From a virus, in IMG/VR virus record IMGVR_UViG_3300032174_000004, positions 1 through 64,000 of that record: 64,000 nt of DNA. One strand, given 5' to 3'. This document shows positions 30,304 to 52,253 of the stretch, one piece after another (positions within the stretch are counted from its first letter, which is position 1; every line of letters begins with the position of its first letter). The translations under genes were made by a program, and so were the position numbers. The notes under the pieces are model-generated. The model worked only from the letters and a program-made list of their open reading frames with translations. It was not told the DNA's origin and searched no databases.

Positions 30304-30756
30304 TTATCCTACTAGTTGGTAATTCCACGCACCTGCATGCCCCGTCGCGGTGAGCGCTTGGCGACGTGGACTCAATCCTTCGGGTGCGACCGAAATATGA
30401 ATCCATGCGCGACACTCAAATAGCACTTGGTCTATAGGAAACTCCACCCGAGTCCTGAGCATATCGAAGACGACGCTGAGGTCCAATCCTATTGGGATGA
30501 AATCGGCGGCGAGGCCTGCCAGATGCGCGCTGCCATGGGCACCCCCGACTGCCGCATTGACCTTGGGAGAGCGGAACCCGCTGTTGATGTGCATCGGGAC
30601 ATTGAGTAGGGAGCGTACGGGCTCCAGCAGTTCCTGACAGAGGCGCTTCAGGTTCAGGACCTGCTCTGTGGTCGGCGTATTGTCGATGCCTTGCCGTAGA
30701 GCGACCTCTGAAAAGGTTAGCTCCTCCAGAGAAAAGTGAGGCGTCAATGGGTTCAT
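30304..30756 (-). CDS. peptidase M15 endolysin
   Basis: A 150-residue protein of the M15 (D,D-carboxypeptidase/VanY-like) fold. GFRSPKVNAAVGG then SAHLAGLAADF supplies zinc ligands His78 and Asp85, and WIHIS supplies His120. It cuts the peptide bridges of peptidoglycan. No signal peptide, so it depends on the holin for export. Gene order endolysin, holin, Rz/Rz1 is classical. Confidence 0.85.
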   Translation of the reverse strand: MNPLTPHFSLEELTFSEVALRQGIDNTPTTEQVLNLKRLCQELLEPVRSLLNVPMHINSGFRSPKVNAAVGGAHGSAHLAGLAADFIPIGLDLSVVFDMLRTRVEFPIDQVLFECRAWIHISVAPEGLSPRRQALTATGHAGAWNYQLVG

Positions 30757-31193
30757 GTGTCAGTTCTTCTACGGTTATAAGGTTGCGACTCAAACCGCTG
30801 CTCAATGCGGTTCAACTGCGCCTTGATCGCGTTGAATTCCCCCGGAATGTAAGGATCAATGAGTTCGTGCTTCCAGTCCCTCAACCGCTCTAACTCCGCC
30901 TCAAGATGGGTTAGCCGCTGTACGACAGCCACTTGCACGTCGATCTTTGTCTCAATGCGCTCAAGCCGCGCTGTGTTTTCAGTATGTAACGCAGCACGAT
31001 CAGCGCGATTTTGGTCTTGGATCTCCTTCAATTCAGTTCGAGTAACGGCTTTTTCCTGAAGCTTAACGGCTTCTTCCTGAAGCTTGTCGAGCCGGTTATG
31101 AAGACGCACGCCGATAAATCCCAGTAGCGTGGTTATGAGGGCCGTCAGCCATTGCATAATACTCCCAACAGAGAACACATCTGGCTCACTCAT
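30753..31193 (-). CDS. membrane-anchored coiled-coil protein
   Basis: A 146-residue protein. A hydrophobic segment near 14-30 (MQWLTALITTLLGFIGV) followed by a long charged coiled coil (LDKLQEEAVKLQEKAV and beyond) and a basic end. Good Shine-Dalgarno (GGAGG) before the ATG. First gene of the lysis cluster; could be a second holin or lysis accessory. Function not certain. Confidence 0.65.
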   Translation of the reverse strand: MSEPDVFSVGSIMQWLTALITTLLGFIGVRLHNRLDKLQEEAVKLQEKAVTRTELKEIQDQNRADRAALHTENTARLERIETKIDVQVAVVQRLTHLEAELERLRDWKHELIDPYIPGEFNAIKAQLNRIEQRFESQPYNRRRTDT

Positions 31194-31211: not shown

Positions 31212-34200
31212 TTAAGCAACATTTTCCTTGATTGTTTGGGCAAAGTAGTCGCGAGCCTGTCGGTCCGGCTCAAGAGGCAAAGAAGCAACGAGATCTGCCG
31301 TAGCAGGATAGCCTGCTTGGCGCATGGAGATAGATGTCTTGCGTCGGGCGGCCGCCGCTTTCGCTTTGTCCTGCCCCACGGTCGCCTTGGTCTGGTTCAT
31401 GCGCTTGACCGACTCGACATACTCCTTGGTGAGCTCGGCTGCAGTCGCTTTGTCACCCGACATCAGCGCTTTCTTGATCTTGTATTTCAGCTCACCAGTA
31501 TATTTCTGGTCCTGCTCGAGACGATCGCGACGCTCAAGCTGCTCAGGCGAGGTGATATAGCCAGGCGCCGGTGTCACCCCAATCATGGGCAACGCCTTCT
31601 TTACTGACGCCCCAAACCCAGAAGGCTGCTCTGTCGCCTGCATCTGTTGGCGTCCCTGCAACGAGAAAGGCGTCATCTCATGCGCGGCAAACTGCGCCTG
31701 TTGCAGTTTCTGGTGCCAATAGCTGGCCTCAGGGTCGCTGATCGGGTTGCCGAAGAAGTCCTGGTTCGAGTACAGGTTGCCGATCAGACTGAAAATCGGG
31801 TTCAGCTTGTTGACGATGGTCTGTCCAGGCCGCTGCGAGTACTCGTAGACATCCTTCACGTAGGATGGTAGCGAGACGCGCTCCGGCGTCCCGTAGTTCG
31901 TCGTGCCACCCGTGCGGGGGAAGAAGTAATCCTTCAGCTCCTGCGGTCCTTGGCCAGTTGCCATGTACTGGTAGATGGCCGAGTACAACGCCGTCGTGCC
32001 AGCCATCGCCAGCACGTAAGGAATCCGGTGCCCCAAGTCATCAGCGCTCACCTTGCCCGTGCGAATAGCCTTGTCGACGGCTTTCACCATGTCGATGGGC
32101 GCGCCGCCGATTTCGCGAACGGTACCCACGTTCCAGCCCACCGCGCGTATCCCTAGATGCAGTGAGTCTTTCATGGTCCGGTTCCAGAAGAGGTTGTCGT
32201 ACACCATCTCGCCCAACCGGTTGTCGACCGAGTCCCAGATTCGCTGCATCGCGGCCGCGCGATCGTTGGGGTCCTGAGTCGGGTTGCGCCGCAAGTGATC
32301 GGCCGCCAAGTCCGAGAACACCCCCAGCTTCTGCATGGGGACGAGGTGCTCCATGATCCAGGAGGTGGAGGCGCGCACTACCCGCATTGCCATCTCCACT
32401 GGGACTTCCATTTTTGGGGTCGTCTTCCAGATCTCCTGCGTCTCCTTCCAGAGCTTGTTGGCGTACTCGATCGGGAAATGCCCTAGAGCTCGACCCAGGT
32501 TCTGGATCTTGTCCTGCGGCGCGGTGAGCGCTTGTCGAATGTCGTTAGCAAGCGAGCGAACACCAACGCCACGGAAAGGACTCACGCCCTCTGCCGCCTG
32601 GTAGTAGCGATCCATGTGCGCGCGACCGCCGGCCATGGTGAGCATCTGGACCATCCGCTGCATGTCTGGGGTCGCGCCAGCCGGATTCGAGTAGGCCTGC
32701 AGCAGCTTATAGCCGCGGCGGACGTTCATGACCGCCCCGACTGGCGTAGCTCCCTCTACGAAGGAAGCCGCAGCCTTCCCGACCTCCCCATGGGCTAGCC
32801 GCTCGAGCGCCTGAGCGTTCTTCGAGATCATCGCATCGAGTGTCGTGAACCCTAGGTGGAACGCTGAGAAGCCAAGCTGCATGGCATTTAGCGCGTTGGC
32901 GCCACGGCGGAATATCTGGGCAGGCGCGAAGTCTCGGAGGGCCGAGGCCGACACGTGGTTATTAATCACTCGTGCCGCATCGATCGGCATGATGTACTGA
33001 CCGCGCTCGATGAAGCCGTTCTCCTCCTCCGACCAAGAACGGACTTTCGCAATGTTGTCGTTGATCGGACCCCAGCCATCTGGCATCGAGTGGCCAGCGG
33101 GTAGGAACTTGGCGAGGCCATCTTCCTTGAAGCGCCGCATGAGCGTGACGCCCGTCACGAAGCGCTGCATCTCGCGCGTCTTGAGCAGCGTCATGATGAG
33201 TGGGTTCGTGGTGAGCGGCGTGAGACCCGCGTCCATACCTTCCTTGATACTAGGGATAGTTCGCATCTTCAGGAAGGATGCCGGCCCACGCAGAGGACGC
33301 CGGCCCATGATGGAGGCCACCATACGTTGCGCCTCATCCGGGAAGCGCCAGTAGTGCGGGAAATAGTTCTCGATGAAGTTGTCGAGGTAGCCCTCGCCGA
33401 GGCCTTGTACCTTCCCGCGCCAGTCATCTAGCAGCTTGCGCATCGCATCCGCGACGGGCTGCATCTCAGGATTCGGCTGCTCTACCCCACGCTCGATCGC
33501 ATCCATCATGGCAAGTTGCTCAGGGATAGGAGTCTTATCGATCTCCCGTGAGAAGCGCTCTAGCGCTTCCTGCGTTTGTACCGTCTCGTGAGCAAGCTTG
33601 CCGAGAGCCTCTCGAGCGATTTGCGCGACTTGGCGTGACTCAGCGCTCATGCCTACTGGGTTGATCAGCTTGCGGAGATCGCGAACGCCTTTCGCTTCCG
33701 CAACGGCAGAGACTGCTCGACGAACGATCGGATATGCTCCGGGCTCGCGCTGCTCTTCAAGAGGCAATTCCTGCTGGCGCCGAGAGAACATCGGAAAGCC
33801 CTGGCTGAGGGCTGCTTGGCGAAGAGGTTCGGTAATGTCAAAGCCGTGTACGGGGATCGCTGTATCTGAAGGAGCGTTCGGCGATAGCGCCGCTTCGGTG
33901 GGATCAGGCCCTATTACCTCAGTACGCCCTACCTTCGCGCCGTACTTCTTGATGAGCTTGTCGGTCTCGCGGGGGAGGATAGAGTCATAAAACCCTTTCA
34001 TGCCAGACCCCCCGACATGGAGGTCCAAGCCAGATAAACTGCGTTCTGGAAACTTCTCGTTAGGATAGATCGAGGTGATCTGACCCTCACCTCTCTCCAT
34101 CTTTTCCGCGAGTTCCTGCCCTACATACTCTCCAACCTGCTCCTTAGTCATTCCCTTATTTTGCAGATCTGGTGCAGCAGACTGCCCATTTCTCTCCGCA

Positions 34201-37200
34201 TATAACCAGTACTTGCCGTCTTCATCGCGCGAATAGACGATGCGATCGATATGCTGCGCGAGGTTATATCGGTCTGCCTGCTGATCTCCGGTAGTCCAGG
34301 AGATGCGATCGAATCCGTTCTCCGCCGCGTGCCTGATCATTCGCTTCATGGCCAACATCGGCCAGGAGGTTTTGAAGGGAGCGGACGGTACCCCGACTTC
34401 ACCCTCAGTAAGCGCCTTTATTTCGTTTTGTGCATCCACCCATTCTTGCTTTTGCTCAGCAGTGACTGACTTGCCATGAAAGTCCCAGAGAAGTGCCTGT
34501 ATTTCGTCACGCCGCTTTACCAGCTCCGCAAGGCGCGCTTCCTTCTCTGGCCGGTATCCCTGCTTGCGGCCTACCTGATGCCAGTCCGATTGAATCTCTT
34601 CGAGGTGTAGAACCTTCTTCCCTTCAGAGTCGGTGCGCTCGTTGAAGCGGACGTGGGCGAGGATGTTGGGCTCGCGCCAGTGCCCAGATTTATAGATAGG
34701 CTGGAGTGCACCATGATGCTGGGTGGGCAATTGCAGTAAAAGCTCGCGGTAGTTCCCCCCGCCAGGTAGCGTGTACTCACCGTACTGCGTTCCGTCATTC
34801 TCAAGGTGAGTCCAGCCTTCCGGGCCTGCTGCACGCCGAGTGCGCTCATCTCCCACGCGAGTAGAGATGTTGTTTAGCTCCTCGACATCGGAGCGAAGAG
34901 AATCTGGTAGCCGCTCCATATCGTCCGTGTTATAGCTATAGTGACGCGATTCAATGCCGTCACCGTCCTCTCCACGTACTCCGATGTGATCTAAATATCC
35001 CTCATCAGTGAATGTGATTTGATGGCCTTGCGCTCGGAGCTTTTCAGCTAGTTGTATCTGGGCGCGCTCGTCTTCTGTTTGTTCAGCAGAATCGATGCGT
35101 TCCCCATGAACCGTTTCCTGCAGCTCAAGCCGATTCGCGCGCACGTAGTCAGCGAGTTCTTCCTTGGTGACTGGACCTTTATGGTCCTTTAGCCAGTGGT
35201 CTAAATTTAGCCACTCAAGTTCCTCAGGCTTGACTCCAGACTGCTTCTTGAGAGTTGCTAGCCATTGTTCAGCGGAGGCCTTCCCCTGCTTGCTCTCACT
35301 GATGGCGCGCTCAACGGGCGAGTAGAACATCGGCGCGCGCTGGGAGCGTGGGGGTTCGCCAGGAAGCGTTCCAGCGGTCCCACCCTCAAGCGCAGTGCGC
35401 GCCTGCTGGATCAGTCCCGCGATCGCCTTGTCATCGTAGAAGGGTTTCCCCCTCATCTTAGAGAAGAATGCCTTCACGGCGCGGACAGCGCGCTTCCAGT
35501 ACGGAAGGACTGGCTTGTCGATGGGCTGGCCGGAGAGATGCTGACCGGCCGCATAGGCAATCACTTCCTCTGCAGCAGCGCGGCGTTGGTCAACGTCACT
35601 GACATCGAGCCCGTTCCTCTGGGCCGCCGCCTGCACCCGCTCCGGCATATCTCGGTTGATCCCATCCATGACTGCGTTATATGTTGGCCTATCCATCGCC
35701 AGTCGGAGACCGTGATGACCCACCGCCTCGTGCCAGAGATTCTCGCGCACCTCACGCTCACTCCCGTTGTTGCCGGCAATGAGATGGATGCGATCTGCGC
35801 CCGGATCGTAGACGGCGCCTGTCAGGCGTTCCGCGCCCTGCTGTTCAACGAGGCTCTTGATAGATTGTGGAAGAGTGGACACATCTTGGTGCACCTCGAC
35901 GTGCGGAAAACCGGCGACGAGGTTAGCTTCTCGTATCGTTTGGTGAACGATGCGCTGGACGTGAGCCAGCGGGAGGCCTGACGTCGTCCCCTCGGTCCTA
36001 CGGTACTTCGATTCCTTTCCCCATTTGTCAACGAGGAGCACCGACTTGGGCTGGCCAGGTCCCTCGCTAAGACGTACTGCCTGTTTACCGGCTGCTCGAG
36101 CTTCATCGACCGCTTTGTCTACTGCGTCTGGATTTCCGGCATATACATCTTGGGCCGGCTCGTAGATATCGTCGGAAGCTAGCTTGAGCCGCTTTATCTC
36201 ATGGTCTTGACCAGACTGAGTGAATTGGCGCGCGAACTCCTTCTCTGGTGTATAGAAGCCGCCACCAGCGTTGCGAACATTTTCCCCGCGGTAAAGCGTC
36301 TCAGTCTTACGGTGGGAAAACTTCGGCTCTACTTCCTTTTCGGAGCCGGCGGGAGGGTGACCTTGGTTATCTTGCCGCCCTGCTTCGCGAGCTCGGATAG
36401 CCGATCCGGGAGGCGCCTGGCCGCGCGCAGCGCGCTCTCCTTGGGCTTCTCTTCTCGCTTTGTGGGCACTGAGGGCGGCATCGGCTTCTTGAGCGTTCTT
36501 ACCTACGCCGTAGGATACTCCGAATCCCTTCAGTTCAACGACTCGGCCGTCAGGCATCGTCACTTCGATCTGTGCGCCCTTCAGGTGCTCCTGAATGCGG
36601 CTCATCAGCTCGTGCGCTTCCGTCTCAGTATGGGTCTGCGCGGCGAACTCATCCCCTGAGATGTGGTAGGCCTCGTCGGTATGGCGCGCGAGCGCGGTCC
36701 CAATGGCTTTCAGCAGCATGTCCCCCGACTCATGGCCCATCTCATCGTTGACCCATTTCAGCGAGTCAACGTCGATCGCCACCTGGTGGGGAAGCTTCTC
36801 GGCTTCCTGATAGGCCCGACGGTTTGGGATGCCAGTGAGCTCGTGGGTCAGCAGCGCAGCGCGCAATTGATCTGGGGTCATCTCTTTGACCCGACCTCGA
36901 AGCGCCGTATCTACGCGCCGGTCAACGCGTTCCGCTCCAGGAACTGCGCGGTTTGTGTTTCCTGAATCCAGCCACTCCTTGAACTTCTCAGTAGGCATCT
37001 CGGCGATTGAGCCCAAGCCCCGCCACCCCTTCGGGTAATTTGCGCGATAGACCGCCTCGGCTTCCTGTTGAGAGTCAGCACCCAGAACTGATTTGTGCTC
37101 GTCCAGCTTGCCCGTAGCTGGATCGATTTGATTGATGACGAAGACTTTACCGGTATCTGGCTTGCCAGTGAGAAAAGCATCCACTGCATCCCCATCCTTG

Positions 37201-39533
37201 CCCTCAGTCCCCTTCACATAGCCATACGTGTGGGACATTTCCCTGGACCATGGCTTGCCATCCGGGCCAATACCTGAGCGCGTAGAGCCTTTGGGGTTCT
37301 CGATCGCGACCTTCATTCCCGCGAAATCGACAACGCCCTTTTTGTACGTCCCGGCTTGCTTCTGCCCTTCGGTGGGCGCCGTATTGGTCTGCGCCTCAGC
37401 GCGCGCTAGGGCTTCTTGGAAGCTTTCTTCTTGGCCTTGCGGTGCGCCTTGAGCCTTTGCAGGTTCTTCAGTACCGCCGCCTGGAGTTTGCTGTTTTTCG
37501 GATCCACGGGCGATTATGGACTCAAGCTCACCGCGAACGCGAGCGATCGTCTCTGGGTGATCGTCATTCCAGCTATCGAGCGTCTGGACGGTTGCCGCGC
37601 GATCGTGATCGCTTGCCCGGCTCGCCAGCAAGGTGAGATCTAGCGCCCCTTCTGGCTGCTTATCCAGATCCGGTACCGCTTCCCGCAGCTCCGCATGCCT
37701 TTGGTTCATGGCGGTGCGCTCGTCGTGCACCTGCGTCATGAAGTCGATCATCGACTGCTCACGGGCCTTGAGCGGCTGCCCAGCGAGCGCCTTGTCGACC
37801 GCATCGTGCACCTGGCTCTCCGTAAGCCCCTTCGGGCGATCTGGCCACCAGTCGGCGCGTGGGAGCCACTTGGTGCGGCCTACCACCTCATCCGTGGTGG
37901 CGTCGCGGATGACCCGGCCCCCTTCCTCCGCCCATCCAGTCTCATCCTTCATGGCGGTTAGGCCATCTCGGAGGTCCTGGTCGGTAGCGAGACGGTGCTC
38001 TGGAGTGCCGTCTTGAGGGCCCTGTGGATGCACCACGCCGTCACTGACTTCCTGGTTCAGCTGTGTTAAGCGACGCCGGCCAGCGGGGAGGAAGATCGGC
38101 TCATTCAAGTCATTGCGCTTGATCAGCCCCAGCTTCTCCAGCATGTCGGCTTGCGGAGGGGTAATCGACTTATCCTTCAAGGCTAGTAGCGCGGCATGCT
38201 CGGCAGAACTTGGTTGCGACCCTTGGGAGCTGCTGGTAGCAGCTTCGGGCGCTTCGGAAGATTTCTCGGCGCTTTCAGTAGGTTGAGTCTCAGTCGAGGT
38301 GGGGTGGACAGTGGTAGCACCTTCACCTGCCTCAGTGTGTGTCTGTAGCACAGTTGGCTTCGGCGTCCGCGACGTTGCCGCATGGAAGGCTCCCATTGGG
38401 GCTCCTACCACGCTTCCGACCAGCCCCGACCACGCGACCTGCTTGAGCGCCTCATCGAGCGGCAAATGCTGGTTGAGCACCCCTGCATCGATCCCCTGCT
38501 GGAGAGCATTCACCACACTTTGTGTAACGCCCTGAGCCGCCGCAGTGCCGGCGACTTTGCCCACTCCAGTCTGTGCGAGCTTGTCACCCACCACACCGCC
38601 GATGATTTTGTTGGCAAGAGGCGTGTTCTCAACGATCTTGAGGACTGGAACCTCCGGTACGCTCGAGGCGAGGGTAGACAGCACTGCGTAGGTGCTCGCT
38701 GTATCGTGATCTAGTCCCTTATTACGTGCCGCCGCGTACTCATTCGGCGCGATATCTGCGGCCATGACGGCGGCACCACCGACGCCCCCTGTTGCTACTG
38801 TCGCACCGACCCCAGCCAAGATGTCTGGCGACATGGTTGCGGCATCAAATACGAGCGCCTTGAGCGAATGGTCATCCATGTGCGGCGCGTAAATCTCCTG
38901 GACCTGCTGCGCCGTGAGTCGCCGCTTCGTGCCAGCCTCCATCTGCGCGCTGCCAGTCTGTAGCCGATCGCGCTGCTTCGACTTGAATTGCTCAAGCTGC
39001 TCCTGGGACTGATTCACGTATGTTGGCCAGTCGCGAGTAAACGTGTCCGGCCGAATCCCAAGGTGCTCAGCGGCGCTTTGGACCTCCGGCATATCAGTCA
39101 GCGCCGCCCCTTGCTTCTGAGCGTCTCGGACCGCTTGTGGGAGCACGGTGGCCTGCCAGAACTTCTTGCGGGCGTCATCGTAGGCGCTGTGGCCTAGGTA
39201 CTCCTGAGCCCCCGCGATCTTCGTCTCAATGCCAGCACCGATGGCAGTCGGGATCCCGCGGGCCACATCGCTCCAGGAAGCCGGTGGATATTCCCGCTTG
39301 GCACTGACCGTGACCTCAGGCATCTGCGCCTGGTCGGTGACGTCCTGCATGCGGGAAGCCGTCGTGTCCGCCGCAGACGGGCTATCCATCTGGTCCAATG
39401 GATTCCCAGCTGGATGGTCGTCGAGGTCGTCTAGCGGATTCCGTTGAGGTGTAGGCGCGCTCGCCAGCGCCGACATAGGAAGTGCAGGGGCGCTTGCTGC
39501 GTCATCAAGGGCGTCAAGTGGATTCGCTGCCAT
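31212..39533 (-). CDS. giant polyvalent internal virion protein with GGDEF-like domain
   Basis: A 2773-residue protein, by far the largest gene. Order of parts, rough residues: 1-420 Ala/Ser-rich with hydrophobic helices; 730-860 an inorganic-pyrophosphatase-like domain of phage polyvalent proteins (AIENPKGSTRSGIGPDGKPW, GYVKGTEGKDGDAVDAF); 880-1045 a GGDEF-like domain (LTGIPNRRAY, AIDVDSLKWVND, ISGDEF); 1075-1175 ADP-ribosyltransferase-like segment (YRGENVRNAGGGFYTP); 1190-1370 a zincin-like region with HEAVGHHG near 1266; 1440-1870 a large polyvalent-associated region; 1900-2773 helical, with a possible membrane span near 2516. Such proteins are packaged and injected with phage DNA. Domain names are by motif; the last 870 residues are unassigned. 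Confidence 0.85.
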   Translation of the reverse strand: MAANPLDALDDAASAPALPMSALASAPTPQRNPLDDLDDHPAGNPLDQMDSPSAADTTASRMQDVTDQAQMPEVTVSAKREYPPASWSDVARGIPTAIGAGIETKIAGAQEYLGHSAYDDARKKFWQATVLPQAVRDAQKQGAALTDMPEVQSAAEHLGIRPDTFTRDWPTYVNQSQEQLEQFKSKQRDRLQTGSAQMEAGTKRRLTAQQVQEIYAPHMDDHSLKALVFDAATMSPDILAGVGATVATGGVGGAAVMAADIAPNEYAAARNKGLDHDTASTYAVLSTLASSVPEVPVLKIVENTPLANKIIGGVVGDKLAQTGVGKVAGTAAAQGVTQSVVNALQQGIDAGVLNQHLPLDEALKQVAWSGLVGSVVGAPMGAFHAATSRTPKPTVLQTHTEAGEGATTVHPTSTETQPTESAEKSSEAPEAATSSSQGSQPSSAEHAALLALKDKSITPPQADMLEKLGLIKRNDLNEPIFLPAGRRRLTQLNQEVSDGVVHPQGPQDGTPEHRLATDQDLRDGLTAMKDETGWAEEGGRVIRDATTDEVVGRTKWLPRADWWPDRPKGLTESQVHDAVDKALAGQPLKAREQSMIDFMTQVHDERTAMNQRHAELREAVPDLDKQPEGALDLTLLASRASDHDRAATVQTLDSWNDDHPETIARVRGELESIIARGSEKQQTPGGGTEEPAKAQGAPQGQEESFQEALARAEAQTNTAPTEGQKQAGTYKKGVVDFAGMKVAIENPKGSTRSGIGPDGKPWSREMSHTYGYVKGTEGKDGDAVDAFLTGKPDTGKVFVINQIDPATGKLDEHKSVLGADSQQEAEAVYRANYPKGWRGLGSIAEMPTEKFKEWLDSGNTNRAVPGAERVDRRVDTALRGRVKEMTPDQLRAALLTHELTGIPNRRAYQEAEKLPHQVAIDVDSLKWVNDEMGHESGDMLLKAIGTALARHTDEAYHISGDEFAAQTHTETEAHELMSRIQEHLKGAQIEVTMPDGRVVELKGFGVSYGVGKNAQEADAALSAHKARREAQGERAARGQAPPGSAIRAREAGRQDNQGHPPAGSEKEVEPKFSHRKTETLYRGENVRNAGGGFYTPEKEFARQFTQSGQDHEIKRLKLASDDIYEPAQDVYAGNPDAVDKAVDEARAAGKQAVRLSEGPGQPKSVLLVDKWGKESKYRRTEGTTSGLPLAHVQRIVHQTIREANLVAGFPHVEVHQDVSTLPQSIKSLVEQQGAERLTGAVYDPGADRIHLIAGNNGSEREVRENLWHEAVGHHGLRLAMDRPTYNAVMDGINRDMPERVQAAAQRNGLDVSDVDQRRAAAEEVIAYAAGQHLSGQPIDKPVLPYWKRAVRAVKAFFSKMRGKPFYDDKAIAGLIQQARTALEGGTAGTLPGEPPRSQRAPMFYSPVERAISESKQGKASAEQWLATLKKQSGVKPEELEWLNLDHWLKDHKGPVTKEELADYVRANRLELQETVHGERIDSAEQTEDERAQIQLAEKLRAQGHQITFTDEGYLDHIGVRGEDGDGIESRHYSYNTDDMERLPDSLRSDVEELNNISTRVGDERTRRAAGPEGWTHLENDGTQYGEYTLPGGGNYRELLLQLPTQHHGALQPIYKSGHWREPNILAHVRFNERTDSEGKKVLHLEEIQSDWHQVGRKQGYRPEKEARLAELVKRRDEIQALLWDFHGKSVTAEQKQEWVDAQNEIKALTEGEVGVPSAPFKTSWPMLAMKRMIRHAAENGFDRISWTTGDQQADRYNLAQHIDRIVYSRDEDGKYWLYAERNGQSAAPDLQNKGMTKEQVGEYVGQELAEKMERGEGQITSIYPNEKFPERSLSGLDLHVGGSGMKGFYDSILPRETDKLIKKYGAKVGRTEVIGPDPTEAALSPNAPSDTAIPVHGFDITEPLRQAALSQGFPMFSRRQQELPLEEQREPGAYPIVRRAVSAVAEAKGVRDLRKLINPVGMSAESRQVAQIAREALGKLAHETVQTQEALERFSREIDKTPIPEQLAMMDAIERGVEQPNPEMQPVADAMRKLLDDWRGKVQGLGEGYLDNFIENYFPHYWRFPDEAQRMVASIMGRRPLRGPASFLKMRTIPSIKEGMDAGLTPLTTNPLIMTLLKTREMQRFVTGVTLMRRFKEDGLAKFLPAGHSMPDGWGPINDNIAKVRSWSEEENGFIERGQYIMPIDAARVINNHVSASALRDFAPAQIFRRGANALNAMQLGFSAFHLGFTTLDAMISKNAQALERLAHGEVGKAAASFVEGATPVGAVMNVRRGYKLLQAYSNPAGATPDMQRMVQMLTMAGGRAHMDRYYQAAEGVSPFRGVGVRSLANDIRQALTAPQDKIQNLGRALGHFPIEYANKLWKETQEIWKTTPKMEVPVEMAMRVVRASTSWIMEHLVPMQKLGVFSDLAADHLRRNPTQDPNDRAAAMQRIWDSVDNRLGEMVYDNLFWNRTMKDSLHLGIRAVGWNVGTVREIGGAPIDMVKAVDKAIRTGKVSADDLGHRIPYVLAMAGTTALYSAIYQYMATGQGPQELKDYFFPRTGGTTNYGTPERVSLPSYVKDVYEYSQRPGQTIVNKLNPIFSLIGNLYSNQDFFGNPISDPEASYWHQKLQQAQFAAHEMTPFSLQGRQQMQATEQPSGFGASVKKALPMIGVTPAPGYITSPEQLERRDRLEQDQKYTGELKYKIKKALMSGDKATAAELTKEYVESVKRMNQTKATVGQDKAKAAAARRKTSISMRQAGYPATADLVASLPLEPDRQARDYFAQTIKENVA

Positions 39534-39536: not shown

Positions 39537-40988
39537 TCAGCGGGCCAACGCGCTCTGCGGTTGAGCGAACTGCTGATATTCGCGAGGCAGATAGCCAAAC
39601 TTAGCTAGGAAGTAGGGCGCGATCTGCTGCGGGTTCTTCTGGAGCGCGTCCAGCTGAGCGGCATTGGGCCCCCGCGTCATTCCAGATGGCGGCTGCGTCG
39701 GGACAGCCCCTGTTCCACGTGGAACAGCTGAGGCTGTGGGACGGGCGCCAGGGTTTGGAGGGGTCTCAAGCGCCGAGCGTGGCGCAGGCGGTACGGGAGT
39801 GGCTGGGCCCCCACGCTGCATGCGGTTGTACTCGCTCTCTGCGTAGTCGTCATGGTGCTTCTGCACTTCCTCCGGTGTCATCCCCATCCACGAGGTGGGA
39901 TTCGCCCGGATGAAAGAATCCGCCGACTTCTCCGCCATTTGACGACGTTGGGCGTCAGAAAGCTGGTACGTGCGGGGATTAGCGGCGTACTTGAGCGCTT
40001 CTTGCTGGACATTCTGCAGATCTTGGCCAGTTAGCGGCTGGCCATTCGCGTCCTTGCCATTGGTGGACATGTACAGGTTGTAATTCGCCTGTGCGGCCGT
40101 CTGTTTGCCACCTCCTGAGCCGCCGCCTGGAGCGGCCTTGATGGGGGTCCCGTCCTTACCAAGTTGCACGACCGACCCGCTACCTGTCACCCCGTAGATC
40201 GATCCGTCATCCCCCGTGACTGTGCGCTTGACCTGGCCAGCGAGCATGGAGGCGCGCTTATTCGCCCCCGCCTGCTGGGTATCCACCCGCTGCTGAGCGG
40301 CCGTATTGCGGCTCTCTGTACGGGCACCAGCTCCTTGCTGCTGCAACTCCGTACGCCCCAGCATGGCGTCCTGCTGCTGGAAGGCGCGGATATCGCGACC
40401 CTCCTCGAGCGCTGAGCGTGAGGCCAGCTGCGCCTTCTCCTTCCCCTGCGCAATCGTGAGCTGGTTGCGCATCTGGGCGTAGCGCCCGGCCTGCGCCTGC
40501 TTCTGCGCCATGAGGTCCTTGGCGCTCTGCAGTGTCTCCGTGCCCGACTCTCCTATGGCGGCGCCCACTGAGGGGGTCACCTGACCATACTGGGAGCGCG
40601 AGTGCGACATCATGCGCAGCCCGAACTCCATGAGCAGCATCCCTTTCTCTTTCTGAGAAAGGTTGGTCTGCGGCTGGCCGCCCAGCTGATCCATCATCTT
40701 TTGGTAGCTCGAGTCGATGCTCTCGTTGGCGGACTTCAAGTGATCGCGCAGTTCCTGCAGCGTTTCCTTCTGCGTTTGATCGTGCTGCTGCTGCCATAGC
40801 TGTCGGAAACTCAGGCCATTGCCTGCCTGCTGATCCCCCTGTGCACCCATGAGCGCGCTGGGAGGTGGCGGGGGAGCTTGCCCTTGGTAGAGATCCGGCC
40901 CCAAGTCGCTCGCCTGGCTGTTATCGGTTGGATCCGGCTGCGGGGCTCCAGCCAGTTGCGACTGCATCTGATCGGCAGGCGTACTCAT
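39537..40988 (-). CDS. internal virion-type helical protein
   Basis: A 483-residue protein, Gln/Ala-rich and mostly helical (FRQLWQQQHDQTQKETLQEL), with a Gly-rich turn near 290 and Pro-rich stretch near 400. Composition and place between the giant protein and other Gln-rich genes suggest an internal or ejection protein. No enzyme motif is seen. Confidence 0.7.
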   Translation of the reverse strand: MSTPADQMQSQLAGAPQPDPTDNSQASDLGPDLYQGQAPPPPPSALMGAQGDQQAGNGLSFRQLWQQQHDQTQKETLQELRDHLKSANESIDSSYQKMMDQLGGQPQTNLSQKEKGMLLMEFGLRMMSHSRSQYGQVTPSVGAAIGESGTETLQSAKDLMAQKQAQAGRYAQMRNQLTIAQGKEKAQLASRSALEEGRDIRAFQQQDAMLGRTELQQQGAGARTESRNTAAQQRVDTQQAGANKRASMLAGQVKRTVTGDDGSIYGVTGSGSVVQLGKDGTPIKAAPGGGSGGGKQTAAQANYNLYMSTNGKDANGQPLTGQDLQNVQQEALKYAANPRTYQLSDAQRRQMAEKSADSFIRANPTSWMGMTPEEVQKHHDDYAESEYNRMQRGGPATPVPPAPRSALETPPNPGARPTASAVPRGTGAVPTQPPSGMTRGPNAAQLDALQKNPQQIAPYFLAKFGYLPREYQQFAQPQSALAR

Positions 40989-42323: not shown

Positions 42324-42358
42324 CCTGATTCTATGGTGGAATATACCATCGAATCAGG
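42324..42358. terminator. perfect 8+5-bp hairpin in a late-gene gap
   Basis: CCTGATTC, a T, ATGGT, loop GGAATAT, ACCAT, a C, GAATCAGG. Overlaps the stop of the 2OG-oxygenase gene and precedes the internal virion gene. No T-run on either strand, so it may be an RNase III or stability hairpin, or mark an insertion boundary. Confidence 0.5.
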
Positions 42359-43004
42359 CCCCCATTTGTCTTGGAGTCGCATCGCGTTCCCCATCGCCAC
42401 ACCACAGTGGCTTCAGTCTCTGGTCGCGTTTCACACAGACAATGCAGGTGATTCTCTCGACCGTTGACCCGTTGGAGACCCAATGTGTTTCATTATTATT
42501 GAAAGAGTACACAGTGCCAGGAGCACACTCGAAAGCGCCGTCATCGTAGCAAAACGTCTGCCCTGGTGCGCTCTTGAGCTGTACGGCAATTTTCTCATAC
42601 GTGGTTGCGTGCCAACCGTGATCGATATGCGGTTTTACTTCACCGCCCGGCGGGATGCGCGTGATCAATACACCGCCTAGCCGCTCCGCCTCAAAGTGCC
42701 GCATGAGATCGAAGATAAGCGTGCGCAGGTTGGGAAGGAGGTCAATCGCCGAGTACCACACGCTCTCATGAGGCTCGCCAACGAAATGAACGACAACCTC
42801 ATTGGGATGAGGATATTCCTTGCGAAGCGCGTGGAGTTCGTCAATCGCGCGGTAACGAATCCAGATATCCGATACACCGTTGTGCGCTGGCGCGTAGCCT
42901 TCAGTCCGTAGGGTATAGCGATTCCACAGCTCTGGGTGCGCATCGAGCTCCGCGACGACCGATGATACGTCCAGCCCATACACAAGAGGGCGCAGGTACT
43001 TCAC
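42354..43004 (-). CDS. 2-oxoglutarate/Fe(II) dioxygenase of the Asp/Asn-hydroxylase type
   Basis: A 216-residue protein. Iron ligands His126 and Asp128 (KPHIDHGW), His174 (ETHWVSNGS) and the 2-oxoglutarate-binding Arg184 (VERITCIV) are in place, with the preceding RIPPGGEV strand typical of aspartyl/asparaginyl hydroxylase-like enzymes. It would hydroxylate a protein or small molecule; substrate unknown. Forms a tight ATGA-linked trio with the sulfotransferase and GNAT genes. Confidence 0.85.
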   Translation of the reverse strand: MKYLRPLVYGLDVSSVVAELDAHPELWNRYTLRTEGYAPAHNGVSDIWIRYRAIDELHALRKEYPHPNEVVVHFVGEPHESVWYSAIDLLPNLRTLIFDLMRHFEAERLGGVLITRIPPGGEVKPHIDHGWHATTYEKIAVQLKSAPGQTFCYDDGAFECAPGTVYSFNNNETHWVSNGSTVERITCIVCVKRDQRLKPLWCGDGERDATPRQMGA

Positions 43005-43516
43005 CGTACGTTCCCCATCATTCGCTGGATCAGGCGTCGGCAGACAGCGGGATCTGGGTCGAGCTTCTCAAAGTCGGCTTGCACATTGAGTTGCCGCAAT
43101 AGGGCGTGCCGAGGAGCATCGAAGGGAATATGCCCTTCAAAGAGATGATCGTGAATGATTTCGGGATGGTGGAAGATTTCGCGCCAGTCCACATGGAAGC
43201 CATCAATTCTGGCGAGGTCGTCTTCCCAGTTGTGATCAAGTGGCGGGAGCCCCGCTCGACGCAAGGAAAGGTCTATCTCGCGCATGTCCCGATGCAAGAT
43301 CACTTTGCGAGCGGGATGCCGCTTGAGCCAGTCCGGGAAGAGAGCGATGCCCGTGTCTGCAAGCCCTAGGATGCGATCGCAAGGTATCGTGTCCAGATCC
43401 TCAAGGTCATGCGTGATACACAGCTCGTGCAGACACAGCGAGAGCTCAGTGGTGCACCAGTTACTACACCATGCGGTTCCTGACCGAGGCGCTCCTATGA
43501 TCATGAACGTAATCAC
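43001..43516 (-). CDS. sulfotransferase-like protein
   Basis: A 171-residue protein. GAPRSGTAWCSNW (8-20) is the PAPS-binding P-loop of sulfotransferases; KVILHRDMREIDLSLRRAG resembles the 3'-phosphate-binding region (R-D-P-R-x-x-x-x-S), here with M for P. Shorter than most sulfotransferases (250-300), so the acceptor-binding part is reduced. Could sulfate a glycan, protein or small molecule, or have lost activity. Confidence 0.75.
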   Translation of the reverse strand: MITFMIIGAPRSGTAWCSNWCTTELSLCLHELCITHDLEDLDTIPCDRILGLADTGIALFPDWLKRHPARKVILHRDMREIDLSLRRAGLPPLDHNWEDDLARIDGFHVDWREIFHHPEIIHDHLFEGHIPFDAPRHALLRQLNVQADFEKLDPDPAVCRRLIQRMMGNVR

Positions 43517-44016
43517 GCGCTGGCCGCCTTCGTGAGGGTCGGTAGCGGCATGCGCAGGAAGGTATGGCGAGAGGGCAGGTAGCTTGAGCGCTTGGCGATG
43601 ACCTCATTCAACTCTGCCGGCGTCAGCATCTGCGATCCCAGGAAGCCGACTAGCTTGTTGCTGTCGAGGAATCGCTCCAGTGCGTCGAGTAGCTGCTCAG
43701 GGACTCGCGTCGTACGATAGGCCGGCGTCACTGCCAACCAAGTCTCAGCCAGCACTACAGTCTCGCACCATGGCGTGCGAATCGGCGCCACGCCTATGCT
43801 GCCGAGAAGCCGTCCTTGGAGATCCGCGACGATCACGAAGGCGTGTCGCAGCGTGGTAGTCACGTACTCCAGGAGCTTCTGCTCATCGAGTTTGCCGATT
43901 TCCCTAGCCGGTGTTTCAGAGTAGCCGGCCTTGATCAGGCGGACCAAATTCACGCTGTCCATCGCCGTTGCTGGCCTGATGACTACCGCATCCTTCTTCT
44001 TCTCTCGCATCTTCAT
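43513..44016 (-). CDS. GNAT-fold acetyltransferase
   Basis: A 167-residue protein. VVIRPATAMDSVNLVRLI at the start, a GRLLGSIGVAPI strand, and AETWLAVTPAYRTTRVPEQL, which is the acetyl-CoA-binding region (here R-T-T-R in place of R-G-x-G). Acetylates an amine; substrate unknown. First of the three-gene modification cassette inside the virion gene block. Confidence 0.75.
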   Translation of the reverse strand: MKMREKKKDAVVIRPATAMDSVNLVRLIKAGYSETPAREIGKLDEQKLLEYVTTTLRHAFVIVADLQGRLLGSIGVAPIRTPWCETVVLAETWLAVTPAYRTTRVPEQLLDALERFLDSNKLVGFLGSQMLTPAELNEVIAKRSSYLPSRHTFLRMPLPTLTKAASA

Positions 44017-44454: not shown

Positions 44455-45360
44455 CTAAGCAGTGCGGCGGAACCAATCCATTTGGTGCGCCGATACGATA
44501 TTAACGCCGCCGTTCCCTATAATCGCTATGTGTGTAACGCTTCCGACCCAAGCTGACAATGCCACTGTAGCCAGTACAGTGTACTGCAACCCACCGGCGC
44601 TATACGAAAATATTAAGTTAGTCCCGTCATTCTTGACCTTCATATACACTGGAACTATACCGCTCCATGTCTGTGTAGCAGTAGTCGCGTTGAAGGAGTA
44701 AGTATTATTACTAGCGTTACGGGTCTCGCTTTGGAGTTGTAAGTTAGTTCCATTCCATCCCCAGTAATATCCCTTGTACGTCGAACTGTTGTAAATCGCA
44801 AAGCCCGCTGCGGCGAAGAATTTCCATGTAAATTCCCAAGGGGTTGCGGGTACGGCTTGTGAAAAGAATATGCCAGAGTTGCTGGACCCGTTCACCGATA
44901 TGTTAGCTAAACCACCGAGTTGTACCAAAGAGGTTACGGGAGTAGCGCCGCCATTATTTATGAGCACCCATGCATTCGCTCCAGCAAACCTGGCTCCCGT
45001 TGTATCGATAGAGGATCCAAATTCAAACTCATCATCCCAAACTGTTGGACTACTTGGATGTGTGTCAGGAGTTATATTTACCCCAGTAGCCCCGCCAGTA
45101 CCCGCCGGCCCTACCGCCCCAGGTGGCCCAGGCTCTCCGTCCTGCCCATCCTCAGCGAGAAAGAAAATTGCAGGCCCTGCTGGACCGGCGCTGCCCGTGG
45201 CTCCAGCTACTCCTGGTTGTCCGGGGATTGCATGCCATCCATCCTCCCCATCCTCGGCGGCCAGATAGATAGCCGGCCCTTGCGTTCCTGGCGTCCCAAC
45301 AGCACCAGCGGGCCCTACTGGACCATCTTTCGGCAGGCCTTGAGGGTCGAAGAGCTTCAT
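44455..45360 (-). CDS. collagen-like tail-fibre protein
   Basis: A 301-residue protein. N-terminal MKLFDPQGLPKDG, then Gly-X-Y repeats (GPVGPAGAVGTPGTQGPA) with two copies of a GPAI-x-LAAEDGEDG element, then a beta-rich C-terminal domain of about 200 residues with lectin/LamG-like look (GFAIYNSSTYKGYYWGW). Collagen-like repeats trimerise fibres and the C-terminal domain likely binds receptor. Next to other fibre genes. Confidence 0.75.
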   Translation of the reverse strand: MKLFDPQGLPKDGPVGPAGAVGTPGTQGPAIYLAAEDGEDGWHAIPGQPGVAGATGSAGPAGPAIFFLAEDGQDGEPGPPGAVGPAGTGGATGVNITPDTHPSSPTVWDDEFEFGSSIDTTGARFAGANAWVLINNGGATPVTSLVQLGGLANISVNGSSNSGIFFSQAVPATPWEFTWKFFAAAGFAIYNSSTYKGYYWGWNGTNLQLQSETRNASNNTYSFNATTATQTWSGIVPVYMKVKNDGTNLIFSYSAGGLQYTVLATVALSAWVGSVTHIAIIGNGGVNIVSAHQMDWFRRTA

Positions 45361-48620: not shown

Positions 48621-49307
48621 GTGAAGAAAAAGAGCGCCGATTTGAAGGCGAGACAGACCTTCGGTTTCCTTACAGTGCTTCGTTACGCGGGTAAGCGGGG
48701 ACACAATGATTACTACGATTGCCGCTGTCAGTGCGGAAACGAAGCCCCGTACCAGAAATGGAATCTGTTGAGCGGCAATAGCCAAAGCTGCGGGTGTCTC
48801 AAAGGCCGGTTGATTTCGTTGGGGCGCACTGTTCATGGGCATGCCCGTCCTCGACGCACGCGCGAATATGGCGCGTGGAAGCATGCGAAGGGTCGATGCT
48901 ATACGCCCACAGACGAGAAGTATCCTGACTATGGCGGACGTGGCATTCGCATGGCCGAAGAATGGCTCAACGATTTTCAGGCTTTCTTCGACCACATTGG
49001 CCCAGCACCTCCGAATACCACGCTTGATCGCATCCATAACGATGGGCATTACCAGCCGGGTAACGTTCGTTGGGCTACCGCTGAAGAGCAGGCCAATAAC
49101 CAACGCAGGGTCGTACTGTTCGAGTGGGCCGGGAGACGGCTTTCTCTGAGCCAGATAGCGCGGATATATGGCATCCATTCCGGAAATCTTTGGGGGATGG
49201 TTCATGATGCAAAAATGCAGGTACACGTCGCAGTAGCTCACATCCTGCAGAACCGCGAACGCACGCGACTGGGACTGAAGAAAGTGCAACTGTCGCGTCC
49301 TAAGTGA
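48621..49307 (+). CDS. HNH homing endonuclease on the antisense strand
   Basis: A 228-residue protein. CRCQCGNEAPYQKWNLLSG and SCGCLKGR form the same N-terminal finger as at 28839; HNH core PDYGGRGIRMAEEW and TLDRIHNDGHYQPGNVRWAT; C-terminal HTH-like (RLSLSQIARIYGIHSGNL). Encoded against the surrounding late genes, with only 7 bases overlap to the adhesin gene, and GTG start chosen at 48621 without a clear ribosome site. Confidence 0.8.
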   Translation: MKKKSADLKARQTFGFLTVLRYAGKRGHNDYYDCRCQCGNEAPYQKWNLLSGNSQSCGCLKGRLISLGRTVHGHARPRRTREYGAWKHAKGRCYTPTDEKYPDYGGRGIRMAEEWLNDFQAFFDHIGPAPPNTTLDRIHNDGHYQPGNVRWATAEEQANNQRRVVLFEWAGRRLSLSQIARIYGIHSGNLWGMVHDAKMQVHVAVAHILQNRERTRLGLKKVQLSRPK

Positions 49308-50892
49308 CCGAGCCACGAATATTGGGGCCGCCAGAACCGCTGGAGAACGTCACCGATCCTCCGTTCAGATCGATCGCCTTTCCGGCCGCCCCGCCAGTAC
49401 CGGGTAGCGAGGGCGACCCCACCGACGTTCCACTCGCACCAGGTGAGCCCCAGTCGCCGCCGTTACCGCCCGCGCCCGCGCTAGTCGTCCCACCGCCATG
49501 ATTGCCAGCCCCTCCTGTCCCAGGCGCACCGTGCACGCCCCGGCCACCAGGGGTCCCATTGCTGGCGTTCACAGGGCTGCCGTAGGATGAGTTGGTGCCC
49601 CCAAAGCCTGGATGGCCCCCTCCTACCCCGCCGCCGCCGCCGCCGCCATTGGAGGAACGCGGAGAGCCTGTGCCAGCCGCCCCACCCCCGCCGCCGCCGC
49701 CGCCCGCGCCCCAGATGAACCCTGGGTTGGCAATGTTGAAGTTAATCCCTGCGCCCGGCCCTTTGACTGCAGGCCCTCCATCGGTTCCATTCGCGCCACT
49801 GGTCTCATCAGTGATGGAGCTGCCGCTCTGACCGTACTCGCCTCCCTTGCCCCCGTCGCCCCCGCAACCCAGCACGTAGCCGTTGTTCGTCAGGTTGATT
49901 GTCGAGCCGGAGGGGAAGCCCGTGAAATCGAGTGCGGGCGTTGCGGGAGAGCCTCCCTGAATCGTGACGCCAGCCGGAATGACGACGTTGACTGTCGGGG
50001 TGCCCCCAGGCGAGCCCACACGCAGATAGACATTCACGTCCATCTCATTTGAGGTGAGGTTGAGGGTTGCGGTCCCTGGCGTGGCCACGCCGATCGAACT
50101 GCGGGCCCGCCAGATGTTTGCGCCCGCGTTGTAGGTGAGCTGGAAGCGGTCAATCGCCCCAGGAGTCGTTGACAGCGTCCCAGTCGACCCTGAGTCGAAA
50201 ATCACAGTGCCCGGCCACGTCATCGTCCGGGAGCCCGTGCCGTCCTGCTGAAACCAGATCTCGATGCGCTGTCCGTCGTCAGGATTCGTGATCGAGAGCG
50301 TCCTGTTGCCACCGATCAGGCAATAGAAGCAGTTCGACAGCATCGCGTTCAGCGTGATCGTCGCCCCGTCCGTGAGGTTTGCGAACGCCGTCGCATTGCC
50401 AGCACGGAAGGCATTGAAGATGTCCAACCGCGCGTAGTTCGCCGCGACCACGCCACCAAGTTGTAACGAATTCGTTACGGATCCGACCGGCGCAGCCTGC
50501 GGAGCGAATACGTTCGTGCCATCACACGCGACCCACTGATTAGAAGCGGCCGGGATAGCAACGCCCGTCCCTGAGGCCGTCTTAACCGTCATCGTCTGGC
50601 CCGTGTTATTCACCACGAGGTAGATCTTCGGGAGGGCGGGGACGATGCAGTTGAAACCACTGGTCGGGGCGCCAGTGAGGTTGATGATCGCCATGCGCGC
50701 GGTATCCGTCGCGCCGTTGTTCGTGCTGAGCGTGACATCACCCGTGGAGACGGGAACGTTCGCCAGACCGCAGATGGAGTCCTCGACGAGCTGGATGGCC
50801 GCCGCGTTCAGCAGCGCACCCCAAGTATTGACGTTGCCACCGGTAGCTTGGAGCCGGAACCGGAGACGACTGCTGTAGGAATCAGCGGGCAT
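49300..50892 (-). CDS. receptor-binding adhesin with polyglycine domain
   Basis: A 530-residue protein. N-terminal half: beta-rich domain starting MPADSYSSRLRFRLQATGGN, similar to base of fibre-tip proteins. C-terminal 160 residues are Gly-rich (for example GGGGGGGGAAG and AGGNGGDWGSPG), the pattern of polyglycine-II bundles in gp38-like phage adhesins, with variable loops that contact the receptor. Very likely a host-recognition protein at the fibre tip. Confidence 0.75.
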   Translation of the reverse strand: MPADSYSSRLRFRLQATGGNVNTWGALLNAAAIQLVEDSICGLANVPVSTGDVTLSTNNGATDTARMAIINLTGAPTSGFNCIVPALPKIYLVVNNTGQTMTVKTASGTGVAIPAASNQWVACDGTNVFAPQAAPVGSVTNSLQLGGVVAANYARLDIFNAFRAGNATAFANLTDGATITLNAMLSNCFYCLIGGNRTLSITNPDDGQRIEIWFQQDGTGSRTMTWPGTVIFDSGSTGTLSTTPGAIDRFQLTYNAGANIWRARSSIGVATPGTATLNLTSNEMDVNVYLRVGSPGGTPTVNVVIPAGVTIQGGSPATPALDFTGFPSGSTINLTNNGYVLGCGGDGGKGGEYGQSGSSITDETSGANGTDGGPAVKGPGAGINFNIANPGFIWGAGGGGGGGGAAGTGSPRSSNGGGGGGGVGGGHPGFGGTNSSYGSPVNASNGTPGGRGVHGAPGTGGAGNHGGGTTSAGAGGNGGDWGSPGASGTSVGSPSLPGTGGAAGKAIDLNGGSVTFSSGSGGPNIRGSVT

Positions 50893-50902
50893 GATCTAGT
50901 CC

Positions 50903-51574
50903 TTACTGTATGGGCATCGCCGCCGGCTGCAGGGGCTGGTAGTCCCCTGTGCGCATCGACTTGCGGAGCTCATTGCGCAACCGCGGCACAAGCTCTTGCT
51001 GGTACTTCGTGAGCATATCCGCATAGCGATCATCCGCCTTGATGAAGTGCTCGGCTTCCGCAAGGCAGGCGGCGAACAGTGCATCGGGGCCGGCGCGCGA
51101 CAACCAAGTGGTCGCAGTGGGCGTGGTCGGATTCAAGGACTCAGCCGGCGCGCCGATGTAGCGGTAGTACATCTGATAGGCCTGGTCTGGCGTCGGCACG
51201 ACCTCGATTTGGTTGAATGCGAGCTCGTGGTAGTACTGCGGGGGCGCTTGAGCCGCAGAGAGCGGCGAGAAGGACTGGCAGTACTCGGACGAGCGTTTCT
51301 CTAGGTAGGTAAAGCCGTTGACGGGGTGGATATACGCCGCCGTCCGGACCTGAATCACATCAGAGGGCTTGTTGACCGCTCGAGTCCCGATGCCCATCTG
51401 AATCGACGTGTTGTCCGTCTTGTCGTATTCCTCGATATCAAGGTCGCCCCACAGCCGACGCTCCCCCAAGCCGATCAGGTTAGGCAGGTTCCGCAGGTAG
51501 ATCGCTGAGGCGTGCACTGGCCAGTCCTGCAGGGCTTGCAAGAGAGTGTTGTAAGTCCAAGCGAGATTCGGCAT
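50903..51574 (-). CDS. head-tail adaptor-like protein
   Basis: A 223-residue protein. The combination of WTYNTLLQALQDWPVHASAI, a Gly-rich turn, a RRLWGDLDIEEYD segment and a C-terminal helix recalls P22 gp4/T7 gp11-like adaptors that form a ring under the portal. The homology is by pattern only. A similar protein is at 54588-55331. Confidence 0.65.
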   Translation of the reverse strand: MPNLAWTYNTLLQALQDWPVHASAIYLRNLPNLIGLGERRLWGDLDIEEYDKTDNTSIQMGIGTRAVNKPSDVIQVRTAAYIHPVNGFTYLEKRSSEYCQSFSPLSAAQAPPQYYHELAFNQIEVVPTPDQAYQMYYRYIGAPAESLNPTTPTATTWLSRAGPDALFAACLAEAEHFIKADDRYADMLTKYQQELVPRLRNELRKSMRTGDYQPLQPAAMPIQ

Positions 51575-51584
51575 AGCGCGCCTT

Positions 51585-52253
51585 CTATGGAACGATCACG
51601 GCAAAAGGGGTTGACTGCGGAGATGTGAGACTCGCGGCCGTGTATGTCACGTAGTAGGAATAGGTATTCCCACTGGAAACGGCCGTGTCCGCATAGGAGA
51701 GCACATTGGCAGCAAGCGAGGTGAGCAATGCGTAAGCACCGCCATTCACTGAGCGATAGAGACTCCATCCAGTGACAGCTAAGAATTCCCCTACGGGTAA
51801 TGACCACACCGTATTTGCCGCGGGCCCCCCAGGGTTGTACCACCCACTAAGCGTCGGTGGGCTAAGTGATTCTGTGAGGCAAGCGATGTTCGAAGAGATC
51901 GGAGGGCCCTGCGCAACCGACTGGTTATTCCCCATCGGAGTGGCCATGATTTGGTAGCAATACTGGTGGCCAATTTGAACCGTTTCATCCACGTAGGTGA
52001 TCGGCGCATCCTCATTTGTGACGACGGTATACACCGAGCCGCTGGAGGTATCGTCGGTAGGAATGCTTGGCACGGTCGTGCAATTTTCCACCCCGATAAT
52101 GCCGCCGAGGAAGTCCCGTAATACGGCACATTCGACCAACACCGTCTGAGCCCCGCCATCAACCGCCCGAAAAATCGTGTAGCTATCAATCTCCGTGATG
52201 CCTGTCTCAGCAGGCGTCCACGTCAGCGTCAATGGGATAGGGGCAGTAGGCAT
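51585..52253 (-). CDS. fibronectin type III repeat protein
   Basis: A 222-residue protein with two FnIII-like modules: an N-terminal LTWTPAETGITEIDSYTIFR and a second module with VWSLPVGEFLAVTGWSLYRS, each with the Trp/Tyr placement of FnIII folds. Such modules decorate phage tails or adhesins. Located directly before the Gly-rich adhesin and probably part of the same complex. Confidence 0.75.
   Translation of the reverse strand: MPTAPIPLTLTWTPAETGITEIDSYTIFRAVDGGAQTVLVECAVLRDFLGGIIGVENCTTVPSIPTDDTSSGSVYTVVTNEDAPITYVDETVQIGHQYCYQIMATPMGNNQSVAQGPPISSNIACLTESLSPPTLSGWYNPGGPAANTVWSLPVGEFLAVTGWSLYRSVNGGAYALLTSLAANVLSYADTAVSSGNTYSYYVTYTAASLTSPQSTPFAVIVP

What the first reader, a model, noticed from the sequence alone, without database searches (positions are those of the whole stretch)
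31212..39533. Giant 2773-residue polyvalent protein with GGDEF, pyrophosphatase, ART and zincin-like parts
The single chain seems to combine an inorganic-pyrophosphatase-like domain, a GGDEF-like domain with key D, N-D and S-G-D-E-F motifs, an ADP-ribosyltransferase-like segment and a HEAVGH zincin motif. If injected, it could alter c-di-GMP and modify host proteins at once. A GGDEF domain in a phage virion-type protein is rare to my knowledge. The first Gly of GGDEF is Ser and no RxxD inhibitory site is visible.
Basis: partly seen in the sequence, partly recalled or inferred. Interest (0 to 1): 0.85.

Follow-up and report, generated by a model that had tools for sequence, protein, structure and literature searches.

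The report
Phage polyvalent giant with GGDEF domain
This uncultivated tailed phage makes one 2,773-residue protein, probably ejected into the cell with its DNA, that carries a diguanylate-cyclase (GGDEF) domain with a conserved active site beside several other enzyme domains; that kind of protein is known, but this cyclase belongs to a phage-associated group found in about 60 distinct phage giants and has not been tested.

Summary
Confirmed: a 2,773-aa ORF runs 39533->31212 (minus strand) in a 68.6-kb IMG/VR phage record. InPase (E 5e-51) and GGDEF (E 2e-11) are secure. The zincin call is supported by invariant H, E, H and a downstream E in 22 relatives, but the motif is HExxxH, not HExxH. The ART call is plausible (R-[T/S]-E kept in 9 relatives). 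Residues 1396-1925 form a conserved domain of unknown function. The gene follows a DNA-ejection-protein homologue (conserved in 9 related loci) and precedes lysis genes. This is a polyvalent protein sensu Iyer et al. 2017, who already reported GGDEF+MPTase+ART in a prophage giant. New here: the GGDEF belongs to a phage-associated subgroup (YHISGDEF, C-terminal GxRAxRGxxP) in about 60 distinct viral-contig giants, with stand-alone kin in YuA-type phages; its metal- and guanine-binding residues are 92-100% conserved, so it is probably an active cyclase. Ejection and activity are inferred, not shown.

The parts
31212..39533 (-). 2,773-aa giant (polyvalent-type) protein gene
   Evidence: Open frame; homologous stretches along most of its length in L010, L018, L028
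39384..39524 (-). aa 4-50: three short NPLDxxDx repeats (NPLDALDD, NPLDDLDD, NPLDQMDS) at the N terminus
   Evidence: NPLD at aa 4, 32, 44; role unknown
38376..39278 (-). aa 86-386: conserved N-terminal shell with two hydrophobic stretches (aa 238-256 and 283-301)
   Evidence: Profile hits in L010, L018, L020, L021, L028, L016 and others; hydropathy
36969..37367 (-). aa 723-855: inorganic-pyrophosphatase-like domain (InPase)
   Evidence: PF18823 E=4.7e-51; acidic residues incl. D780 and D785 invariant in 9 sequences; PDB relative is the C-terminal part of a phage portal, 9b41, E=2e-26
36408..36890 (-). aa 882-1042: GGDEF (diguanylate-cyclase) domain of the phage-associated YHISGDEF subgroup
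   Evidence: PF00990 E=1.9e-11; 52 PDB sequences matched, mostly diguanylate cyclases or GGDEF proteins, best 5e-17; conservation
36645..36659 (-). aa 959-963: SGDEF active-site motif; RxxD (R950-D953) nine residues upstream
35994..36308 (-). aa 1076-1180: ADP-ribosyltransferase-like domain, R1082 / T1095 / E1157
   Evidence: A6: R, T/S and E kept in 9 sequences incl. Cobetia phage Carin1 gp32 and stand-alone ORFs; confident model; sub-significant structural matches to ARTs
35364..35906 (-). aa 1210-1390: zincin-like metallopeptidase domain, H1268-E1269-xxx-H1273 ... E1323
   Evidence: A2: H, E, H, E invariant in 22 sequences; helix, three strands, two helices predicted with the motif on the long helices
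33759..35348 (-). aa 1396-1925: conserved domain of unknown function with invariant YxE, H, R and ExQS residues
   Evidence: Alignments A4/A5; present in Pelagibacter phage HTVC028P gp34 beside an internal virion protein; no Pfam or PDB match
31584..33722 (-). aa 1938-2650: conserved C-terminal shell
   Evidence: Hits in L010, L018, L028, L022, L023, L012; none in the phage collection
41301..42266 (-). Upstream gene: DNA-ejection-protein homologue
   Evidence: phrog_4287 E=1.8e-7; homologues shortly upstream of the giant in 9 related loci
39537..40988 (-). Upstream gene of unknown function between ejection homologue and giant
   Evidence: Homologues in L010 and L066; no family
30304..30756 (-). 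Downstream endolysin (M15-type; lysis cassette)
   Evidence: phrog_894 E=2.7e-32; same place in L010

Best explanation
It is a polyvalent ejection-type protein: a conserved N-terminal and C-terminal shell, probably packaged in the capsid and ejected with the DNA (inferred from gene order), carrying an exchangeable set of enzyme domains. The GGDEF domain is most likely a working GTP-dependent cyclase that makes c-di-GMP early in infection (inferred from conservation). InPase would remove pyrophosphate or act on nucleotides; the zincin would cut the chain to free domains or cut a host target; the ART-like domain would modify host proteins. Shown here: the domains, the conserved catalytic residues, the synteny, the domain shuffling. 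Inferred: ejection, enzyme activity, the product c-di-GMP, autoprocessing, and every host effect.
For: Domain matches. In 71 giant-borne GGDEF rows (66 clusters below 90% identity besides the window, median pairwise identity 39%) D921, D923, N929, G937, G960, D961 and E962 are 100% conserved, K1025 97%, D938 92%; N929 and D938 align with the guanine-contacting residues of PleD (PleD roles from my own knowledge). SGDEF enzymes can be active (ECA3270 as cited in PMC3974145; MbaA in PMC8079147). Synteny: an ejection-protein homologue lies about 2.3-3 kb upstream of the giant's start in L010, L018, L020, L021, L028, L066, L073, L076, L080; a relative of the 1396-1925 domain sits beside an internal virion protein in HTVC028P and the ART relative beside a putative lysozyme in Carin1. 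Same shells with reordered insides in L010, L018, L028. Published precedent for polyvalent proteins (PMC5512222).
Against: No virion proteomics and no assay. R446 of PleD (aligned with E1029) is not kept; an Arg stands one place earlier (R1028, 89% in giants). PleD R366 is His here (H957; 65 of 71 giants), so kinetics or product could differ. A GGDEF cyclase works as a dimer, so at least two copies must reach the cell. No PilZ or EAL partner was found in the record. Structural matches for the ART/zincin region are all sub-significant.
Confidence: 0.55

Rival explanations
1. The GGDEF domain is used not to signal through c-di-GMP but to disturb host defences based on cyclic nucleotides, by making a decoy or competing nucleotide or by binding one.
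For: Cyclic-nucleotide defences exist and GGDEF, Cas10 palm and mCpol share a fold (PMC12657218); H957, W927 and the C-terminal GxRAxRGxxP are typical of the subgroup.
Against: The residues aligned with the guanine contacts of PleD (N929, D938) are kept, which favours c-di-GMP; no defence link was found in the record.
Confidence: 0.2
2. The protein is mainly a structural or DNA-channel ejection protein; the enzyme domains are passengers or are inactive in the virion context.
For: The N- and C-terminal shells are kept among the closest relatives while the inner domains are lost, gained and reordered; two hydrophobic stretches.
Against: Catalytic residues of GGDEF, InPase and zincin are invariant or nearly so among divergent relatives, which passengers would not need.
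Confidence: 0.15
3. It is a late protein acting inside the infected cell (not ejected), for example in surface or biofilm changes before lysis.
For: It sits beside lysis genes; the stand-alone GGDEF kin in YuA and Bordetella MW2 lie outside the structural genes, and LK3 lysogens are reported to overproduce biofilm (PMC8471281).
Against: Position directly after ejection-type genes in several phages; InPase is also found fused to a virion portal.
Confidence: 0.1

Closest known systems
Polyvalent proteins of phages (Iyer et al. 2017, PMC5512222), incl. Acetonema longum prophage giant WP_004096050.1
   Same: Very long chain with enzyme domains of unrelated activity; GGDEF, zincin-like MPTase and ART in one chain already reported; InPase a common member domain.
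   Different: Here InPase precedes GGDEF directly and no SWI2/SNF2 or methylase was found; zincin motif is HExxxH. Whether the Acetonema GGDEF is of the same subgroup was not tested.
Stand-alone GGDEF proteins of Yuavirus and Vojvodinavirus phages (YuA gp44; Bordetella phage MW2)
   Same: Same GGDEF subgroup: DSLKW[VI]ND, [SA]GDEF, C-terminal RAxRG.
   Different: About 150 aa, encoded outside the structural genes; Arg, not His, two residues before the motif in YuA and MW2.
Cellular diguanylate cyclases (PleD, WspR, DosC)
   Same: Pfam GGDEF above cut-off; metal, base and triphosphate residues mostly kept.
   Different: First Gly is Ser, His for Arg at -2, extra C-terminal motif, no recognised sensor domain; I-site not conserved in the subgroup.
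InPase domain of phage portal gp19 (PDB 9b41)
   Same: Homologous InPase domain, E=2e-26, at the C terminus of a virion protein.
   Different: Fused to a portal rather than to an ejection-type giant.
M49 peptidases (dipeptidyl peptidase III)
   Same: Hexapeptide HExxGH motif with a pentapeptide minority (PMC5805324), as in this zincin set (20 HExxxH, 4 HExxH).
   Different: No detected sequence relation; resemblance of the motif only.

Membership tests
Polyvalent protein (phage) | Several domains of unrelated biochemical activity in one chain | tested here: met
   InPase, GGDEF, ART-like, zincin-like
Polyvalent protein (phage) | Encoded among structural/ejection genes | tested here: met
   After phrog_4287 homologue and before lysis genes; ejection homologue conserved in 9 loci
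Polyvalent protein (phage) | Packaged and ejected into the host | not testable with these tools
   Needs virion proteomics
GGDEF diguanylate cyclase | Family profile match | tested here: met
   PF00990 44.4 bits vs 23.8; PDB matches mostly cyclases
GGDEF diguanylate cyclase | GG[DE]EF motif | tested here: inconclusive
   Variant SGDEF; active examples are published, but not every Ser variant is active
GGDEF diguanylate cyclase | Metal and guanine residues (PleD D327, N335, D344, E370) | tested here: met
   D921, N929, D938, D961
GGDEF diguanylate cyclase | Triphosphate residues (PleD K442, R446) | tested here: inconclusive
   K1025 kept; R446 position is E1029 with R1028 one place earlier
GGDEF diguanylate cyclase | Makes c-di-GMP | not testable with these tools
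   Enzyme assay needed
InPase of polyvalent proteins (PF18823) | Profile match and conserved acidic residues | tested here: met
Zincin-like MPTase of polyvalent proteins | HEXXH helix plus downstream Glu helix | tested here: inconclusive
   H, E, H and E1323 invariant but HExxxH spacing; 4 homologues have HExxH; no Pfam match above cut-off
ADP-ribosyltransferase | R-S/T-E triad on the ART fold | tested here: inconclusive
   Triad kept in 9 sequences, strand positions fit, fold matches sub-significant
GNAT acetyltransferase (aa 1396-1925) | Fold match | tested here: inconclusive
   Several GNATs among weak hits, none with E<=0.001

The most novel reading that the evidence does not exclude
Many uncultivated phages eject a ready-made, feedback-free cyclase of a phage-associated GGDEF subgroup (YHISGDEF, GxRAxRGxxP), so that a cyclic-nucleotide pulse, of c-di-GMP or an altered product, is among the first events of infection.
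Probability: 0.3. Interest if true: 0.8.

Novelty: new member of a known kind. Interest (0 to 1): 0.5.

Why it matters
If active and ejected, it would mean that phages deliver a second-messenger synthase with their DNA, linking c-di-GMP control (biofilm, surface glycans that can serve as phage receptors) or cyclic-nucleotide defence to the first minutes of infection. The subgroup signature gives a short list of domains that can be expressed and assayed directly, and stand-alone kin in culturable YuA-type phages make part of the question testable now.

Tried and rejected
(1) InPase and GGDEF as an obligate pair clearing pyrophosphate for the cyclase: rejected, InPase is in only 15 of 66 GGDEF giants and in either order, and GGDEF in 1 of 79 InPase loci. 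(2) R950xxD953 as a true I-site: present but unique among 71 giant rows, so left open. (3) Domain 1396-1925 as GNAT: weak Foldseek hits only. (5) An ART search with one sequence found no relative; with the Cobetia pair it found 13. (6) A nine-sequence InPase alignment was too diverse to scan; five sequences worked. (7) PDB profile searches with the zincin, ART and 1396-1925 alignments gave nothing convincing.

Full report
What is there. The window is bases 1-64000 of a 68,635-base IMG/VR virus record. The finding is one ORF of 2,773 codons on the minus strand, 39533 to 31212. It begins 3 nt after the stop of the preceding gene, consistent with translational coupling. The phage records searched hold no close relative (megablast of 39001-64000: no match).

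Domains. Pfam gives InPase at aa 723-855 (E 4.7e-51) and GGDEF at 899-1026 (E 1.9e-11), both well over their cut-offs. NCBIfam agrees on a diguanylate-cyclase domain. The zincin part has no Pfam family above cut-off, but 22 aligned sequences keep H1268, E1269, H1273 and E1323 without exception. Its motif is HExxxH, one residue longer than the canonical HExxH; of 24 homologous stretches counted, 20 have HExxxH and 4 HExxH. The M49 peptidases show the same pair of motifs (PMC5805324), which is a resemblance only. The ART-like part has relatives in Cobetia phage Carin1 gp32 and 13 viral contigs, some of them stand-alone ORFs of 113-128 aa. R1082, T/S1095 and E1157 are kept in all 9 aligned.

Structure predictions. 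Aa 1062-1404 folded with mean pLDDT 81.8. R1082 and T1095 lie on predicted strands and E1157 just after one; the zincin shows a helix, three strands and then long helices that carry the HExxxH and the Glu, the layout that Iyer et al. describe for polyvalent MPTases. Foldseek matches are all sub-significant (best E 0.058), but lethal factor, ZmpB, PPEP-2, tankyrase and a PE-like toxin among them fit zincin and ART. Aa 1395-1931 gave pLDDT 71.7 and no significant match; it remains a conserved domain of unknown function.

The GGDEF subgroup. An alignment of the window domain with L002, YuA gp44 and Bordetella MW2 shows invariant D-x-DSLKW-x-ND, GDEF and a C-terminal R-A-x-R-G. Scans found 79 viral loci; of the 80 genome loci kept, about nine (L088-L096) are close kin and the rest look like ordinary GGDEFs. 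Most of the kin are embedded in ORFs of 1,000-6,000 aa; 60 clusters below 90% identity come from viral contigs. In 71 giant rows the metal and catalytic positions are 92-100% conserved, the first residue of the motif is Ser in about 90%, and His stands two residues before it in 65 (Arg in 78 of 84 cellular rows). The cellular set was picked by the same patterns and so is enriched in SGDEF. On a FastTree tree built without the C-terminal motif the giants need 3 changes of label against 43 in shuffles, and a supported group of 15 giants holds the window; many forks are unresolved.

Modular insides. L010, L018 and L028 share the N- and C-terminal shells but differ inside: L010 keeps InPase before GGDEF and has no detected ART or 1396-1925 part; L018 and L028 have GGDEF before InPase. 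InPase occurs in 15 of 66 GGDEF giants. In the reverse test, 71 of 79 InPase loci are giants, 49 have the zincin and one has the GGDEF. So GGDEF is an occasional payload, and the pyrophosphate-coupling idea is not supported as a rule.

Gene context. On the same strand come portal (L182, phrog_1216), major head protein, tail genes, a phrog_4287 DNA-ejection homologue, a gene of unknown function, the giant, then lysis genes with an M15-type endolysin. The ejection homologue lies about 2.3-3 kb upstream of the giant's start in nine related loci, and the endolysin follows the giant in L010. This is why I infer ejection.

Function. Conservation of the residues that bind metal, guanine and triphosphate argues for a GTP-using cyclase; SGDEF enzymes can be active (PMC3974145, PMC8079147). 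Reservations: R446 of PleD is displaced, R366 is His, and a dimer is needed. RxxD is present at I-site spacing but not conserved. Stand-alone kin are annotated as diguanylate cyclases in YuA and Bordetella phages, and lysogens of the related phage LK3 overproduce biofilm (PMC8471281), which is correlation only.

Novelty. Iyer et al. 2017 described polyvalent proteins, their InPase and GGDEF domains, and a prophage giant with GGDEF, MPTase and ART (PMC5512222). The window protein is a new member of that kind. What I did not find in the papers searched is the phage-associated GGDEF subgroup and its recurrence in giants; a subscription-only paper could have it.

Noticed in passing
window 42354-44016 (-): Three consecutive small genes between tail and ejection genes: aspartyl/asparaginyl beta-hydroxylase-like (PF05118), one without a Pfam family, and a GNAT-like acetyltransferase; homologues of all three in L010, of the first two in L018, L020, L021, L028.
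   Followed up: partly
window 53684-54250 (-): HNH endonuclease with NUMOD4 motif inside the structural gene block, possibly a homing endonuclease.
   Followed up: no
window 30753-31193 (-): Small gene right after the giant with only weak coiled-coil-type matches; a weak homologue follows the giant in L018.
   Followed up: no
window 44455-45360 and 49300-53691 (-): Collagen-like (PF01391, just under cut-off) and glycine-rich proteins, probably tail or fibre proteins.
   Followed up: no
window 39384-39524 (-): Three NPLDxxDx repeats at the extreme N terminus of the giant, possibly a packaging or interaction signal.
   Followed up: no
L168 2576-11140: Cobetia phage Carin1 gp32 is a 2,854-aa giant annotated as hypothetical, with the same ART-like domain, next to a putative lysozyme.
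   Followed up: partly
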